Assembly (NCBI GenBank): GCA_944391585.1
Contig: CALXUD010000009.1
Span: forward strand, 1-36,544
DNA length: 36,544 nucleotides
Source of the DNA: an uncultured Alphaproteobacteria bacterium
GTDB lineage: Bacteria; Pseudomonadota; Alphaproteobacteria; CAAHEQ01; UBA3637
Reading direction: 5' to 3'
Program-made: the position numbers and the translations under genes
The notes under the pieces: generated by a model
The model's database searches: none
What the model was told of the DNA's origin: nothing
Seen by the model: only the letters and a program-made list of their open reading frames with translations
In this document: positions 139 to 28,797 of the stretch, in pieces
How the letters are laid out: the number at the start of each line of letters is the position of its first letter
Position numbering within the stretch: the stretch's first letter is position 1

Positions 139-168
139 AAAAATCCCCCTTGTTTGAGGGGGATTTTT
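139..168. terminator. Bidirectional intrinsic terminator between tsf and prepilin
   Basis: A 12-bp perfect inverted repeat (AAAAATCCCCCT and its complement) flanks a 6-nt loop. It has A/T runs on both sides, so it can act as a Rho-independent terminator in both directions. It closes tsf on the plus strand and the prepilin gene on the minus strand. Confidence 0.85.
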
Positions 169-749
169 TAATCACAAAGGTTCTGATCGTATACATCAAA
201 TAAAAACGCATGACCGCTTCCATGTTCGTTGTCTATACTTTCACAAGCAGAGACGCGTTCTTCCAATGTTGCTTCTTCTATTAAAGTTTTTCCATCATAA
301 GAAAACCATGGTTCTTGAGTAAACATTTGTAAGTAGAAGCCAAATTGATTTATTCCGGGAGCTCCAACAAGTGGCTCAAAGACTTTTGGCGAAATTTTTC
401 GCGCAATTGCTTTACACACATTTATCCAATTTCCATCACTACTGTAATTATTTAAAAAACCCCCATAACAACCAAAATAACAACCGAAGGCATCATAGCT
501 TATTTCTTCATTATTGATTTTAAGTTTTTTTTCACCATAAGGAGAAGAACTTGTTTCTTGTGTAGATCGAACTAAAACGGTAAATTTAGAAAGATTGTCC
601 AGAAAATTATTAGCGCTATTTTCTGCCATCGCATAGCGATACCCTGCTATTCCGCCAACAGATAATACGCCGATGATGGCAAGAACCCCGAGCATCTCAA
701 CCATACTGCGACCAGATTCAAATTGTTTGTTCTGTTGAATGTAGTTCAT
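168..749 (-). CDS. Type IV prepilin-like protein (copy 1)
   Basis: This 193-aa protein has a class III (prepilin) signal. A short leader ends in Gly (ESG), followed by RSMVE with the conserved Glu at mature position +5, then a hydrophobic helix (MLGVLAIIGVLSVGGIAG). The family is processed by a prepilin peptidase and assembled into type IV pili or type II secretion pseudopili in the inner membrane. The C-terminal part has several Cys residues, including a paired CYFGCY stretch and the last-but-one residue, which could form disulfides outside the cytoplasm. A strong ribosome site (AAGGAGG, complement of 756-762) supports the ATG at 749. It is homologous over its length to the gene at 28297, sharing a C-terminal GAP motif and a CES motif. 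No pilus assembly genes adjoin it. Which filament it joins is unknown. Confidence 0.8.
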   Translation of the reverse strand: MNYIQQNKQFESGRSMVEMLGVLAIIGVLSVGGIAGYRYAMAENSANNFLDNLSKFTVLVRSTQETSSSPYGEKKLKINNEEISYDAFGCYFGCYGGFLNNYSSDGNWINVCKAIARKISPKVFEPLVGAPGINQFGFYLQMFTQEPWFSYDGKTLIEEATLEERVSACESIDNEHGSGHAFLFDVYDQNLCD

Positions 750-15189: not shown

Positions 15190-16290
15190 TTAATAAGTAT
15201 CTTTAAACAGAGGTTTACGTTGGAAAAGTTTTGTCATTTGTGCTTCCATCAATGTTCCCAAGATGATTTTCTTATCGCGAATAATGACACGTAATTGATC
15301 TGCCATCAACGGGTTCGGATTTGCAAAAACGGATTGGATTTCCGGTCGCAAGGTTTGAATCCCTTCCAATTTTTGATGAATGACCCCCAAAATACCTCGT
15401 CCCAACAAATCGGCAGCCAAATCTTCATGCAAACCGGCAGCAGTGGCGTATTTGATAACCGAATTGAGCGCGTCTTCCGCACTGTTTGCGTGAATGGTTG
15501 AGATAACCAAGTGACCGGAAGTTGCTGCGCGTAGTACTTGAGAAGAGGTTTCCGGGGTTCTGATTTCTCCTACTAAAATGTAGCGAGGACGTGAACGCAA
15601 AGCTGATTTTAAGCCGTCTCCCCATCGTTCATTTTCAACCGGACTTTGTTTGCAAAGCCCCAAAGCTCCGTTTTTCGCACGATATAAACCATCTAAAGGC
15701 ATTTCCGGAGGATCTTCAATCGTATATGCAAAACCACCATCATTTTCTAAATATTTACGAAGGAGTGCAGATGCAGTTGTTGTTTTTCCCATTCCGGTCG
15801 GACCGCCTAACAAGATAAGGCCGGATGCTGTGGATAAACTAACTAAATGCTCTACGATTGATTCCGGCAATCCCAAATCAAAAACATCCGGTGTGTGAAC
15901 AGGCATCTTTCGACAGTTAAATTGAATTCCTGAAATTGTTAACACGCGTTCAACACGATAGGTATCTCCGGCAAATTTAAGAGCATAACTTGATGAACCC
16001 GTATAGCCTTGTTCTAAAGATTTATGAAAATCCAGCAGGTCATCCGTTTCTAAAGGAATAAGCGCAAAGCGGGTATTTTCGTCCCGAATGTAAGCGATCC
16101 GTTCAGGAGTGACCCAGATATCCGCAAATGAAATATCTGCCAGTGAAGGAGCTCGTATTACTTTTAAATCACCGGAAATCGGATCAATATCCGAGCCTGA
16201 GGTTGTTTTAGATTTTTCTTTCTGAGGAGTCGGTGTTTCCAATTTATCAGCTTCTTCGTTAAAAACAGGAGGGGTGGGTGCCAAGATCAT
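15190..16290 (-). CDS. PilT/DotB-like secretion ATPase
   Basis: This hexameric-type traffic ATPase belongs to the GspE/PilB/PilT/DotB superfamily. I chose the ATG at 16290 (366 aa) because AAAGGA sits 8 bp upstream; two earlier in-frame ATGs (16344, 16317) have poorer sites. After a Pro/Thr/Lys-rich N-terminus comes an N-terminal domain (about 40-130) and a Walker A GPTGMGKT (163-170). The acidic IEDPPEMPL, the Walker B-like RYILVGEIR and the His-containing TSGHLVISTIHANS follow. The stretch DGLKSALRSRPRYILVGE resembles DotB/TraJ of type IVB secretion more than GspE, and the zinc-binding CxxC domain of GspE/PilB is missing. It could power pilus retraction, pilin export or a type IVB-like system. 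No other secretion genes adjoin it, except a divergent block of three unknown paralogues. Confidence 0.85.
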   Translation of the reverse strand: MILAPTPPVFNEEADKLETPTPQKEKSKTTSGSDIDPISGDLKVIRAPSLADISFADIWVTPERIAYIRDENTRFALIPLETDDLLDFHKSLEQGYTGSSSYALKFAGDTYRVERVLTISGIQFNCRKMPVHTPDVFDLGLPESIVEHLVSLSTASGLILLGGPTGMGKTTTASALLRKYLENDGGFAYTIEDPPEMPLDGLYRAKNGALGLCKQSPVENERWGDGLKSALRSRPRYILVGEIRTPETSSQVLRAATSGHLVISTIHANSAEDALNSVIKYATAAGLHEDLAADLLGRGILGVIHQKLEGIQTLRPEIQSVFANPNPLMADQLRVIIRDKKIILGTLMEAQMTKLFQRKPLFKDTY

Positions 16291-16315
16291 TTCTTTTTTC
16301 CTTTCATTTTTCTTC

Positions 16316-16344
16316 ATTGTAAAAGGGGCATGCTTTTTTTTCAA
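16316..16344 (-). promoter_or_regulatory. Promoter of the PilT/DotB-like ATPase gene
   Basis: On the minus strand TTGAAA (16339-16344) lies 17 bp from TACAAT (16316-16321), close to the sigma-70 consensus. The predicted start near 16309 leaves about 20 nt before the chosen ATG, so the upstream in-frame ATGs would lie outside or at the edge of the mRNA. Confidence 0.65.
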
Positions 16345-16356
16345 GTATTTTTTTGC

Positions 16357-16385
16357 TTGATTTTTTTTGAAATCCGTGATAGAAT
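16357..16385 (+). promoter_or_regulatory. Promoter of the three-paralogue operon
   Basis: TTGATT (16357-16362), a 17-bp T-rich spacer and TAGAAT (16380-16385) make a strong sigma-70-type promoter. Its transcript would start near 16392, just before the GGAGGA site of the gene at 16412. It is back to back with the ATPase promoter, about 13 bp apart, so one regulator could control both. Confidence 0.65.
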
Positions 16386-16411: not shown

Positions 16412-16852
16412 ATGTCAACTAAACTTTTTGAAAATTATACCATGGAAGATTTTAAATCTTTTTTCTCAATTGCTTCGAGTGTTATTGTTCAAAATTTATC
16501 TGTGAGTACGAGACAGTTAGATACCACCTCCCAAAAAATGATTGATCGGAATATTTTCTTTGTATATGAAGCTTTAAAAGAATGTCAGCTCAAGGGCTTT
16601 TTAAAGCTTAAAAAGAAAACTCATTTTCCCGCGGGCAGTTTGGGAGATGCTTTTGAAAGAGTTGTTGATACCTGTGCTCAATTAAAAATTCCAGCGACTT
16701 ACCAAATTGGAAAAAATTTTGTTAAACCTTTAAGTGTTGAAAAACAAGTTAAACTTGAACGATTAAGACTTAAAAGAAAAAAATTTTTGAAAAATAATTT
16801 CATTTCAAATTTCTTTGTCAACATGTATCAAAAAACAAAAAAGGAAAAATAA
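16412..16852 (+). CDS. Unknown protein, member 1 of a tandem paralogue family
   Basis: I do not recognise this 146-aa protein. ATG 16412 is chosen because GGAGGA (16403-16408) precedes it; an in-frame start at 16367 would lie upstream of the predicted promoter start. It has no signal peptide or membrane helix and ends in a very basic tail (RLRLKRKKF, then KTKKEK). Its first part, LFENYTMEDFKSFFSIAS, matches LFKNFDKNDFAMFIQKAW in the next gene and TFKRFSASDFVRFAQAAY in the third. A second shared region is a basic amphipathic helix before a short Pro-containing turn (AFERVVDTCAQLKIPA). The basic tail hints at nucleic acid or membrane-surface binding; this is inference. It is the most diverged of the three. 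Confidence 0.75.
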   Translation: MSTKLFENYTMEDFKSFFSIASSVIVQNLSVSTRQLDTTSQKMIDRNIFFVYEALKECQLKGFLKLKKKTHFPAGSLGDAFERVVDTCAQLKIPATYQIGKNFVKPLSVEKQVKLERLRLKRKKFLKNNFISNFFVNMYQKTKKEK

Positions 16853-16853
16853 T

Positions 16854-17426
16854 ATGCAGAAAAAAAATAAAGCTATCCCAGCTTTCCAAAACGATTCATT
16901 AGTTGTCTTTGAAGATGGTAAAACCGCATCGGCTGTGGCATTGGAAAAGGTGAATTCCAATTTAAAGAGGTTATTTAAAAACTTTGATAAAAATGATTTT
17001 GCTATGTTTATTCAAAAGGCATGGGAAGTCAATGAGGTTAATCGGCTGGCTTCAGAAACAAAAGAAAATAAAGTGATTATTTTTAAAAACAATAAAATTA
17101 TCATGGCTGGATTGGATGTGTTGGATTTTTCTATTCGTCGGCGGTTTTATTTATTAAATCGCGATTTTGAAAAACAAGAAGCCACAGAGATTGTGCAAAC
17201 TCGGTTGAAAGAAACGGCTCGAATGGACGGGATTACATTACCGCGTTTGTTAAAGGTAAATCGTTCAACGGCGATGGATATTCAACAAGTATTTGATTTT
17301 AAAAAAGTAAAAGAAAAACCGGCTTCAAAGTTAGATTTTATACGGATGAGTAATATTTCTGTCGTTCATAAATTTCCAAATTTGGTTTTTAGAGGTGGAC
17401 GTTGGTTTTCTATTCATCAGAGATAA
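16854..17426 (+). CDS. Unknown protein, member 2 of a tandem paralogue family
   Basis: This 190-aa cytoplasmic-looking protein is unrecognised. It starts at ATG 16854, one base after the previous stop, with AAGGAAAA upstream; a start at 16815 would overlap gene 1. The N-terminal 35 residues are unique. Residues about 36-60 hold the shared LFKNFDKNDFAMFIQKAW block. A helical middle contains NNKIIMAGLDVLDF, then RLKETARMDGITLPRL. A third block, QQVFDFKKVKEKPASKLDF, aligns with FQIFDKESVRPENMAQSRRLDW in member 3. The pattern of shared blocks with different spacers points to an old duplication. There are no Cys residues and no recognisable catalytic motif. Members 2 and 3 look closest to each other. 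Confidence 0.78.
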   Translation: MQKKNKAIPAFQNDSLVVFEDGKTASAVALEKVNSNLKRLFKNFDKNDFAMFIQKAWEVNEVNRLASETKENKVIIFKNNKIIMAGLDVLDFSIRRRFYLLNRDFEKQEATEIVQTRLKETARMDGITLPRLLKVNRSTAMDIQQVFDFKKVKEKPASKLDFIRMSNISVVHKFPNLVFRGGRWFSIHQR

Positions 17427-17453
17427 TTAAAACTAACCAATAAAGGGTAATCA

Positions 17454-17984
17454 ATGTTAGATTTTATCAATAATCCTCAATGGGCGCGGCAATGTTATGA
17501 TAAAGTTCCGTCATCGGCACGACAGACTTTTAAACGTTTCTCTGCATCTGATTTTGTGCGGTTTGCACAAGCGGCCTATAGAGTGTTGCTTCAAAATAAA
17601 CTCTATTTGGCGCGAAAGAATCGGTTGTCTTTGAATTCAGAGCAGCGTTCTCAAAATCAATCCATTATTGCGCGAAATGCCAGATGGATTCGGAATGGAT
17701 TGGATTTGAGTGATTGTCAAAAAGGGTTGATTTATCAAGGAAATTACGCCAATTCTTTGAGAGCATTAAAAAAAAGGATTGAAAAAATGGCTGTTGCTTA
17801 CGGATTTGAATTACCAACCGATTCATTAGATGAAACACAAAAGCCGGTTCGCCTATTTCAGATCTTTGATAAAGAAAGTGTGCGGCCTGAAAATATGGCT
17901 CAATCACGTCGATTGGATTGGGCATCTCGTCAAACTTTGGCGGTTTATATTAAAGCAAATCGATCTTTTATTCGATCAATGTAA
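17454..17984 (+). CDS. Unknown protein, member 3 of a tandem paralogue family
   Basis: This 176-aa basic protein is unrecognised. It starts at ATG 17454 after AAAGGG, 27 bp from member 2. Shared blocks are TFKRFSASDFVRFAQAAY (about 24-41), ARWIRNGLDL, the helix LKKRIEKMAVAYGFELPTD, which matches RLKETARMDGITLPRL in member 2, and FQIFDKESV..., which ends in RLDWASRQTLAVYI. It has two Cys, no signal peptide and no membrane span. The DF..F...A pattern followed by a helix ending in G..LP defines the family within this window. Function is unknown; coregulation or interplay with the divergent secretion ATPase is a guess based on position only. Confidence 0.78.
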   Translation: MLDFINNPQWARQCYDKVPSSARQTFKRFSASDFVRFAQAAYRVLLQNKLYLARKNRLSLNSEQRSQNQSIIARNARWIRNGLDLSDCQKGLIYQGNYANSLRALKKRIEKMAVAYGFELPTDSLDETQKPVRLFQIFDKESVRPENMAQSRRLDWASRQTLAVYIKANRSFIRSM

Positions 17985-17991
17985 AAAAAAC

Positions 17992-18020
17992 TTGCTTTTT
18001 TTAAAAAAAACGTGTATATA
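17992..18020 (+). promoter_or_regulatory. Promoter of the rimP-nusA-infB operon
   Basis: TTGCTT (17992-17997), a 17-bp spacer and TATATA (18015-18020) form a good promoter with a start near 18027. No other candidate lies between here and rimP. The transcript meets an intrinsic terminator about 17 nt later, so this is a leader with possible attenuation. Confidence 0.55.
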
Positions 18021-18043
18021 AAACATACATTCTTGAAATCAAC

Positions 18044-18076
18044 AAGGGTGGGTCTTAAAAAAGACCCGCCTTTTTT
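18044..18076 (+). terminator. Intrinsic terminator or attenuator before rimP
   Basis: GGTGGGTCTT (18047-18056) pairs with AAGACCCGCC (18061-18070) around an AAAA loop, with one wobble pair, extended by A/T pairs and six T. It may end the three-paralogue operon. Because the only promoter-like sequence for rimP lies just upstream, it may also attenuate the nusA operon. Confidence 0.85.
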
Positions 18077-18114
18077 ATAAAAAACGGGTTGTTAAAAACG
18101 AGAAAGGAAATAAA

Positions 18115-18603
18115 ATGGATTTATGTCAAAAGATTCAAGAAATGATTGAACCGTCTTTGACACATTTAGGGTATGAAATTGTGCGTATCTTGTTGCAAGG
18201 TGGGGATGTCAAGACTGTTCAGGTGATGGTGGAACGGATAGATCGGAAAGATATGACATTAGATGATTGTGAAAAAGTGTCTCGCACGGTATCAGCTTTG
18301 TTGGATGTGGATGATCCGTTTTCCAGTCGTTATGTGTTGGAAATTTCATCGCCGGGCATTGATCGGCCTTTGATTAAAGCATTGGATTATGTGCGTTTTG
18401 CCGGTTTTGATGCTAAAGTGGAAACGTTAGTTCCATTAAAGGGGCGGCGACGCTTTAAAGGAAAAATTTTAGGATTAACCGATGATGAAAAATCGGTTCG
18501 TTTAGATGCTGAAGAAGGAGAGGTTTCCATTGAATTGGAAAATATTTCAAAGGCAAAATTAATTTTAACAGATGATTTATTGAAATATCATCAGATTCAT
18601 TAA
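18115..18603 (+). CDS. rimP: Ribosome maturation factor RimP
   Basis: RimP helps mature the 30S ribosomal subunit. The 162-aa protein has the usual two-domain form. The N-terminal alpha/beta domain contains GYEIVRILLQGG, VQVMVERIDRKDMTLDDCEKVSR and the signature YVLEISSPGIDRPL. A C-terminal SH3-like barrel contains GRRRFKGKILGL. GAGAAAGGA precedes ATG 18115. It is the first gene of the rimP-nusA-infB-rbfA-truB operon, and its leader holds the promoter and attenuator-like hairpin described separately. Confidence 0.95.
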   Translation: MDLCQKIQEMIEPSLTHLGYEIVRILLQGGDVKTVQVMVERIDRKDMTLDDCEKVSRTVSALLDVDDPFSSRYVLEISSPGIDRPLIKALDYVRFAGFDAKVETLVPLKGRRRFKGKILGLTDDEKSVRLDAEEGEVSIELENISKAKLILTDDLLKYHQIH

Positions 18604-23141: not shown

Positions 23142-23546
23142 ATGCGAGGAAGTAAAGCACCGTCTCAACGTCAATTGCGTGTGGCTGAAGAAATAAAGCA
23201 TGTGTTGGCACAGATGTTTGTGCGCGATGAAACCTTTATTGAAGGTTTAAAAACACCGTATTTAATGATTACAGAAACAAAAATTTCTCCCGATTTTTCA
23301 GTGGCGACAATTTTAGTCCATGCCATCGGAGATGTGAATACAGAGGAGCAAGTAGCTTTATTAAATGCTCATAAAGGGGTGTTTCGATTCCAGTTAGGTA
23401 AGAAAATTCGTTTGAGAATTGTTCCGGATATTCGATTTTTCGCAGATACTTCTTTTGAAGAAATTTCTCATATCACGGATTTAATTAATTCTGATGCCGT
23501 TCAAAACGATGTGAAAAAATATCAGGAAGAAAATGAAGCAAATTGA
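23142..23546 (+). CDS. rbfA: Ribosome-binding factor A
   Basis: RbfA helps the final maturation of 16S rRNA in the 30S subunit and is needed for growth in the cold. The 134-aa protein has a single KH-like domain. The opening PSQRQLRVAEEIKHVLAQM is typical, followed by ITETKISPDFSVATILV and a conserved basic LGKKIRLRIVPDIRFFAD stretch near the C-terminus. ATG 23142 follows infB by one base with AAGGAG upstream; an in-frame start at 23082 inside infB is rejected. Its end overlaps the next gene by 14 bp. Confidence 0.95.
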   Translation: MRGSKAPSQRQLRVAEEIKHVLAQMFVRDETFIEGLKTPYLMITETKISPDFSVATILVHAIGDVNTEEQVALLNAHKGVFRFQLGKKIRLRIVPDIRFFADTSFEEISHITDLINSDAVQNDVKKYQEENEAN

Positions 23547-24177
23547 ATTCAAAAGCTGGATTCCTATTGACAGAAAAACGGTGGAACGTTTTGCTAAGCG
23601 TCCTTTACCGGAGGATTTTTGTTTCTTCTCTTTGCAAAAAGTGGATAACTATGATCCAAGCAAAATCGAATATGCCTTACGGTTAGTGCGACAAGTCGGA
23701 GAAAAAAGAAAAGTAGAAACAATTGGTAAAATTAGTGCAACAAAACGCTATTTATCTCCGATTTGTCAAAAACAAGACGGTTCTTTTGTTAAATTAAAAG
23801 ATATTTTTTGGGATCGTCGTGTCGAAATTTTTAAAGCTCCTGAGGGAGAAGTTCGCTATGGAGAATATGGCCTTACAAAAGCTATGGTTTATGCTTTTAT
23901 GAAAGAATTAGATGAACAAAAAATTCCAAAAGTAAGTGTGTGTATATCAGGGGATAACATTTCTTCTTTAAAATTGTCTGAGGCTCTTGTCGGAACAAAA
24001 GAACGCATGGAAATTATGACTTCAGAACAAATGCCAAATGGCAAAATTAAATTTAAACCCAGTGATGTCTATTTACAAATTTTAAATGTCAAAAAAGCCA
24101 TTTTGGAAATGGAAAAGCGGTTTCCCCTAAAAAAAGTTATTCAACATCAAATTTTAAAACAGACGGGAAGAAATTGA
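23533..24177 (+). CDS. Unknown protein between rbfA and truB
   Basis: This 214-aa protein is unrecognised. It starts at ATG 23533 inside the rbfA end (14-bp overlap) with AGGAAG just upstream. Its TGA overlaps the truB TTG start by 4 bp (TTGA), so it is embedded in a translation operon where most relatives have rbfA directly followed by truB. It is basic, without signal peptide or membrane span. Visible segments include ALRLVRQVGEKRKVETIGKI, GEYGLTKAMVYAFMKELDE and VSVCISGDNISSLKLSEAL. Proline codons avoid CCG, the favourite of neighbouring core genes, and the sequence is AT-richer, suggesting a different origin or weaker codon selection. I see no catalytic motif. Confidence 0.75.
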   Translation: MKQIEFKSWIPIDRKTVERFAKRPLPEDFCFFSLQKVDNYDPSKIEYALRLVRQVGEKRKVETIGKISATKRYLSPICQKQDGSFVKLKDIFWDRRVEIFKAPEGEVRYGEYGLTKAMVYAFMKELDEQKIPKVSVCISGDNISSLKLSEALVGTKERMEIMTSEQMPNGKIKFKPSDVYLQILNVKKAILEMEKRFPLKKVIQHQILKQTGRN

Positions 24178-28296: not shown

Positions 28297-28797
28297 ATGT
28301 TTCAAAATCAATCTGGTCGTTCTATGGTAGAAATGTTGGGTGTTTTGGCGATTATCGGAGTGTTGTCAATTGGAGGAATTGCAGGGTATCGTCAGGCAAT
28401 GACCGCGCATCGGGCAAATGAATTTTTAAATGATTTATCTATTTTCTTTATTTCGGCGCGCTCGGCGATAGAAGGAGGACAAGTTGAAGGAAATATTAAA
28501 ATAAAAAATCAAAATTGGTTTTATACGGCAACTTTTTTGATAGGAAACAGTGGATATGATTTTGCTGCGATTATTCCCGAAACAGTTGATGTCGCAACCT
28601 GTAAAGAGTTGGCAACCCGCATAACTGATTCAACATTTGATGCTTTAAGGGGTGCGCCACAAGTATCCGAAGATTTTTATTTTTACACGACCTCATCTGG
28701 GGAGGATTGGATGCAAAGAAATGAAAGTGCACGTAAACAAACATGTGAAAGTGGAGCGGATAGTTCAGGTCGTGTGCATTTTTATATGGGATTTTAA
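28297..28797 (+). CDS. Type IV prepilin-like protein (copy 2)
   Basis: This 166-aa prepilin has a very short leader (MFQNQSG), the cleavage-site Gly, then RSMVE with Glu +5 and the hydrophobic helix MLGVLAIIGVLSIGGIAGY. Leader to helix is almost identical to copy 1 at 168-749, although the codons differ, so the amino acid sequence is under strong selection. The bodies also align: a Cys before a helix (CKELATRI against CKAIARKI), a GAP motif, and CES near the end. It should be inserted in the inner membrane, cleaved by a prepilin peptidase and assembled in a fibre or secretion pseudopilus. AAGGAG supports ATG 28297. No assembly genes adjoin it. The only related machine part nearby is the ATPase at 15190-16290. 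Confidence 0.82.
   Translation: MFQNQSGRSMVEMLGVLAIIGVLSIGGIAGYRQAMTAHRANEFLNDLSIFFISARSAIEGGQVEGNIKIKNQNWFYTATFLIGNSGYDFAAIIPETVDVATCKELATRITDSTFDALRGAPQVSEDFYFYTTSSGEDWMQRNESARKQTCESGADSSGRVHFYMGF

What the first reader, a model, noticed from the sequence alone, without database searches (positions are those of the whole stretch)
16412..17984. Three tandem diverged paralogues of an unrecognised protein family
Seen: three consecutive co-oriented genes (146, 190 and 176 aa) share, in the same order, an F-x-x-x-x-x-DF-x-x-F-x-x-A block, a basic helix ending near (G/K)-I/F-x-LP/IP, and, in members 2 and 3, a QxFD...V......LD block. They have no signal peptide, membrane helix or catalytic motif I know. 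They share one strong promoter that lies back to back with that of a PilT/DotB-like ATPase. Inference: a lineage-specific family expanded by duplication, perhaps linked to the secretion ATPase as substrates, adaptors or regulators. This is the best candidate in the window for an undescribed system.
Basis: partly seen in the sequence, partly recalled or inferred. Interest (0 to 1): 0.68.

Follow-up and report, generated by a model that had tools for sequence, protein, structure and literature searches.

The report
Lineage-only tandem orphan genes
Three small neighbouring genes, found in this one bacterium and nowhere else that could be searched, appear to be diverged copies of each other in an extra segment between two conserved genes; their function is unknown and the proposed tie to the neighbouring secretion ATPase is not supported.

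Summary
The three ORFs are real: 146, 190 and 176 aa, in-frame codon bias, RBSs, 1-bp gap between genes 1 and 2. Relatedness of genes 2 and 3 is solid (BLASTP 5e-8; reciprocal E about 3e-4 in whole-genome searches). Gene 1 is a probable but weaker relative (BLASTP 4e-5 to gene 3; shared N-terminal block; a profile of genes 2+3 does not recover it). No homologue was found in Pfam, NCBIfam, PHROGs, PADLOC, PDB, phages, plasmids, viral contigs, 84,980 species genomes (motif scan), 42 other genomes of the order or about 380 of the class; fold searches find no match. The secretion link fails: the PilT/DotB-like ATPase occurs in nearly all relatives without the family, and in nine relatives (six genera) it stands divergently beside rimP with only 174-243 bp between. 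Here the distance is 1,824 bp, the excess being this cassette. The three are the most basic proteins of the window (pI 9.9-10.4), predicted helical and soluble. Best reading: a taxonomically restricted (ORFan) tandem-paralogue operon, acquired or born at a permissive intergenic site. Side finding: a conserved terminator/antiterminator leader before rimP.

The parts
16412..16852 (+). Gene 1 (146 aa, pI 9.9, GC 28.8%): probable diverged paralogue; shares the N-terminal F-x6-DF-x2-F-x3-A-x2-V block
   Evidence: ORF; BLASTP to gene 3 4e-5; block shuffles p 0.001-0.002; not recovered by a genes 2+3 profile; composition
16854..17426 (+). Gene 2 (190 aa, pI 10.1, GC 33.5%): helical orphan protein; its ATG follows gene 1's stop after 1 bp, with an AAGGA ribosome site inside the end of gene 1
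   Evidence: ORF and sequence; related to gene 3; AlphaFold2 mean pLDDT 57, helical core about 45-125
17454..17984 (+). Gene 3 (176 aa, pI 10.4, GC 38.6%): helical orphan protein
   Evidence: ORF; AlphaFold2 mean pLDDT 73.7, pTM 0.70, residues 1-130 fairly confident and mainly helical; no fold match
16357..16385 (+). Candidate sigma70-type promoter of the cassette (TTGATT-17-TAGAAT, extended -10)
   Evidence: Consensus scan, 9 of 12; not more frequent than in shuffles
16316..16344 (-). Candidate promoter of the divergent ATPase (TTGAAA-17-TACAAT)
   Evidence: Consensus scan, 10 of 12; compatible with an ATPase start at 16290
15190..16290 (-). PilT/DotB-like AAA ATPase, conserved in the order; a neighbour, not shown to be part of the cassette's system
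   Evidence: T2SSE 9.7e-29; PilT family 111 bits against a cut-off of 319; orthologues in relatives; PDB PilT and DotB hits
17992..18080 (+). rimP promoter and leader: hairpin CATTCTTG/CAAGGGTG overlapping a GGGTGGGTCTT/AAGACCCGCC terminator; belongs to rimP, not specifically to the cassette
   Evidence: Conserved upstream of rimP in 20 genomes including those lacking the cassette
18115..18603 (+). rimP, first gene of the conserved rimP-nusA-ylxR-infB block; right boundary of the extra segment
   Evidence: Orthologues in relatives; synteny

Best explanation
A taxonomically restricted (ORFan) operon of three small, basic, soluble, mostly helical cytoplasmic proteins, made by tandem duplication and rapid divergence, that occupies a permissive intergenic site between a conserved PilT/DotB-like ATPase gene and the rimP-nusA-infB operon. 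Shown: the ORFs, the relatedness of genes 2 and 3, the excess 1.6 kb relative to relatives, and absence of relatives in everything searched. Inferred: co-transcription from the promoter near 16357-16385, translational coupling of genes 1 and 2, and entry by acquisition or birth in this lineage. Most likely mode of action (inferred, low confidence, about 0.3): the proteins bind nucleic acid or ribonucleoprotein through their basic helices, the diverged copies acting side by side or as a hetero-oligomer; they are not parts of the ATPase's machine.
For: Gene 2-gene 3 homology and probable gene 1 homology. No homologue in 42 other genomes of the order, about 380 of the class, genome contigs, viral contigs, phages and plasmids, Pfam, NCBIfam, PHROGs, PADLOC, PDB. 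ATPase-to-rimP intergenic distance 174-243 bp in nine relatives of six genera against 1,824 bp here; the same gap holds znuA/znuC-like genes in G009, so the site tolerates insertions. Lower GC than most neighbours for genes 1 and 2 (28.8 and 33.5% against a window mean of 39.8%). The three are the most basic of 36 window proteins, with no membrane segment. Gene 3 is modelled as helical with fair confidence.
Against: Only one genome of this genus is held, so conservation within the genus, which would prove selection on the proteins, could not be tested. No flanking target-site duplication or mobile-element gene was found, so acquisition is not demonstrated. Basic pI is common in small proteins of AT-rich genomes and is weak evidence for nucleic-acid binding. 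A decaying or non-functional cassette is not excluded. Gene 1's membership is not certain.
Confidence: 0.65

Rival explanations
1. The three proteins are substrates, adaptors or regulators of the divergent PilT/DotB-like ATPase (type IV pilus or type IV secretion).
For: Adjacency and divergent candidate promoters. The order carries a type IVb-like pilus cluster (TcpQ-like, secretin, T2SSE, T2SSF) and a VirB4-like gene, so a secretion machine exists.
Against: The ATPase is present in nearly all relatives without the family, directly adjacent to rimP in at least nine. Adjacency is therefore explained by the insertion site.
Confidence: 0.08
2. The cassette is a remnant of a mobile element or prophage (moron-type genes).
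For: Extra segment at a site that is variable among relatives, low GC in genes 1 and 2, no relatives in the order.
Against: No match in 50,697 phages, 72,556 plasmids or IMG/VR by protein or motif scan; the PHROG match of gene 2 is weak (E 2.5e-4 over 34 residues). No integrase or transposase beside it and no convincing repeats at the edges.
Confidence: 0.15
3. Only genes 2 and 3 are paralogues; gene 1 is an unrelated small AT-rich ORF, possibly a decaying one.
For: A genes 2+3 profile does not recover gene 1 (rank 36 among shuffles and background). Gene 1-gene 2 alignment is chance-level. Lowest GC in the window and a low synonymous-codon score.
Against: BLASTP 4e-5 to gene 3; N-terminal block conserved with p 0.001-0.002 against both; tandem position with an RBS.
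Confidence: 0.25

Closest known systems
Taxonomically restricted genes (ORFans) in bacterial genomes (general class, e.g. PMC1824705, seen as a title and abstract only)
   Same: Short, AT-rich, no detectable homologues outside the lineage, no known domain, located between conserved genes.
   Different: Three tandem (two certainly) related copies in one putative operon.
DUF4917 (PF16263), N-terminal block
   Same: Gene 2 residues 27-70 resemble profile positions 24-67 at E 7e-4.
   Different: 19.5 bits against a gathering score of 28; 44 of 311 positions; genes 1 and 3 give no match.
PilT/DotB ATPase systems (type IV pili, Dot/Icm)
   Same: Such an ATPase is the divergent neighbour.
   Different: The cassette is absent from every other ATPase-bearing genome searched.

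Membership tests
Taxonomically restricted tandem-paralogue (ORFan) cassette | Real protein-coding ORFs | tested here: met
   Codon preference positive in the annotated frame and negative or near zero in the other five; RBSs visible in the sequence. No conservation test was possible.
Taxonomically restricted tandem-paralogue (ORFan) cassette | Copies homologous to each other | tested here: met
   Genes 2 and 3. Gene 1 probable, not proven.
Taxonomically restricted tandem-paralogue (ORFan) cassette | No homologues outside the lineage | tested here: met
Part of a PilT/DotB ATPase system | Conserved neighbourhood or co-occurrence with the ATPase | tested here: not met
   ATPase in 21 of 22 same-family relatives, cassette in none; nine with ATPase and rimP adjacent
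Part of a PilT/DotB ATPase system | Physical or functional interaction with the ATPase | not testable with these tools
   No complex prediction or experiment available.
DUF4917 (PF16263) | Score above the gathering threshold over most of the domain | tested here: not met
   Gene 2 only: 19.5 bits against 28, 44 of 311 positions
Known fold in PDB or BFVD | Significant Foldseek match | tested here: not met
   No match at E 0.001 or better; best 0.66 (gene 2, PDB), 2.6 (gene 3, PDB), 1.3 (gene 3, viral). Models rest on three sequences only.

The most novel reading that the evidence does not exclude
The three proteins are a new family of basic helical proteins forming a self-contained lineage-specific system (for example a hetero-oligomeric nucleic-acid-binding complex, a defence or competition module, or injected proteins) with a fold not yet represented in the PDB.
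Probability: 0.12. Interest if true: 0.5.

Novelty: new member of a known kind. Interest (0 to 1): 0.27.

Why it matters
It gives a cleanly bounded case of a tandem orphan-gene cassette: the empty site is visible in nine relatives of six genera, so the origin of new genes in a small bacterial genome can be studied directly. It also removes a tempting but unsupported inference, that genes sharing a divergent promoter region with a secretion ATPase must serve it.

Tried and rejected
Secretion-ATPase partner: rejected by synteny. Phage or plasmid origin: no match. DUF4917, PHROG 23512 and the PDB profile hits 2m4e (E 0.033) and 8adn (E 0.5): too weak and partial. Weak relatives' hits (E 0.003-0.09) lie inside long unrelated ORFs or in frames with stops. 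Fold search: generic helical proteins only, query-normalised TM-scores at or below 0.30. Defence system: no PADLOC hit. Insertion footprints: no convincing flanking direct repeats among the AT-rich chance matches. Rfam hits near 18000 are below gathering scores. Two early scripts were misdirected: one search printed nothing and looked at the wrong side of rimP; one search replaced them.

Full report
OBSERVATION. The three ORFs exist where stated. Their codon preference, trained on the other genes of the window, is positive in the annotated frame (0.13, 0.24, 0.22) and negative or near zero in the other five, so they look translated. Gene 1 has a GGAGG ribosome site; gene 2 starts 1 bp after gene 1's stop with an AAGGA site inside gene 1; gene 3 follows after 27 bp. 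The three are the most basic of the 36 window proteins examined (pI 9.9, 10.1, 10.4) and have no membrane segment.

ARE THEY PARALOGUES? Genes 2 and 3: yes. Smith-Waterman 94 against a shuffle mean of 32 (z 10.6, 0 of 1,000), BLASTP 5e-8, each finds the other in the whole genome at about 3e-4, and a single-sequence profile of gene 2 ranks gene 3 first among 1,000 shuffles and 639 background ORFs. Gene 1: probable. BLASTP 4e-5 to gene 3 and z 6.7, with a higher default-gap score than any of 551 background ORFs, but the advantage vanishes under stricter gap penalties; the ungapped N-terminal 27-residue block is conserved with p 0.002 against gene 2 and 0.001 against gene 3; a genes 2+3 profile does not retrieve it. 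The E-values of 1e-53 to 1e-84 that the three-row profile gives to its own members are circular and were not used.

RELATIVES. Nothing was found in the 42 other genomes of the order, in a sample of 385 genomes of the class, in genome contigs (motif scans confirmed by tblastn, so sensitive only to moderately close relatives), viral contigs, phages and plasmids, or in Pfam, NCBIfam, PHROGs, PADLOC and PDB. The genus has one genome in the collection, which is 84% complete.

SYNTENY. The PilT/DotB-like ATPase is 56-76% identical in 21 of 22 same-family relatives searched. In G001, G002, G004, G006, G010, G011, G012, G015 and G019 it is divergent to rimP with 174-243 bp between start codons and no gene between; in the window the distance is 1,824 bp (start of the ATPase taken as 16290 by comparison with relatives). 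The rimP-nusA-ylxR-infB order is conserved on the right. In G009 the same interval holds znuA- and znuC-like genes (recognised from the translations, not by a family search). The family is thus the content of an extra segment at a permissive site and is not a conserved partner of the ATPase.

STRUCTURE. AlphaFold2 with the three-row alignment gives a mainly helical gene 3 (mean pLDDT 73.7, pTM 0.70; residues 1-130 mostly above 70) and a less certain gene 2 (57.2, 0.57) with helices in the same order (about 46-64, 70-95, 110-124 against 31-57, 62-89, 102-116). As both used the same alignment, this is consistency and not independent proof of a common fold. Foldseek finds no match at E 0.001 or better. 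Gene 1 was not modelled.

MECHANISM. Shown: coding ORFs, paralogy of genes 2 and 3, position in an extra segment, lineage restriction within what could be searched. Inferred: one transcript from 16357-16385, with the caveat that promoter-like sites are no more frequent than in shuffles. Inferred with low confidence: binding to nucleic acid or RNP through basic helices. Secretion substrate or ATPase adaptor is left at about 0.08, as the order does carry a type IVb-like pilus cluster and a VirB4-like gene.

SIDE FINDING. Between gene 3 and rimP lies not just a terminator of the cassette but the rimP leader. In 20 genomes, including those without the cassette, a promoter-like element is followed by a short hairpin (7 pairs as counted, CATTCTC/GAGGGTG in most) whose 3' arm is also the 5' arm of a GGGTGGG...CCCGCC-TTTTTT terminator. 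95.7% of cells pair against 47-70% when slid; two pairs show a double change, one of them the window's own C-G to U-A; the covariation is modest, as 9 to 10 of 500 shuffles equal it. The folding-energy shuffle control was not completed (one search stopped on an error after six leaders, of which only the window's was below p 0.05). The terminator resembles the published 'rimP-leader' with its GGGc...gCCC motif, described as lacking a visible antiterminator in most species (Naville and Gautheret 2010, PMC2965389). A putative antiterminator in this order would be a small addition.

VERDICT. A real but ordinary kind of thing: an orphan tandem-gene cassette of unknown function.

Noticed in passing
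window 17992-18114: rimP leader with a putative antiterminator hairpin (CATTCTTG/CAAGGGTG) overlapping a terminator (GGGTGGGTCTT/AAGACCCGCC-TTTTTT); conserved in 20 genomes of the order. The terminator resembles the published rimP-leader (PMC2965389); an antiterminator was described there as not visible in most species.
   Followed up: partly
L089 3123-15724 (G018:C22); also G008:C19, G005:C40, G014:C47, G016:C25: A VirB4-like gene (CagE_TrbE_VirB) lies next to a type IVb-like pilus cluster (TcpQ-like, secretin, T2SSE, T2SSF); VirB4-like and secretin genes occur in 39 and 38 of 40 genomes of the order.
   Followed up: partly
window 168-749 (-) and 28297-28797 (+): Two dispersed prepilin-like genes with the near-identical N-terminal motif GRSMVEMLGVLAIIGVLS; similar genes lie upstream of rimP in G007.
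   Followed up: no
window 23533-24177: Another low-GC (33.6%), basic 214-aa ORF with no Pfam match, between apparent rbfA and truB genes; possibly a second orphan insertion in a conserved operon.
   Followed up: no
L082 4200-7100 (G009:C11): In this relative the ATPase-rimP gap holds znuA/znuC-like genes instead, so the interval is a variable site.
   Followed up: partly
window 15190-16344: The ATPase start is probably ATG at 16290 (MILAPTPPVF), with an AAGGA ribosome site, as relatives begin at the equivalent place.
   Followed up: yes
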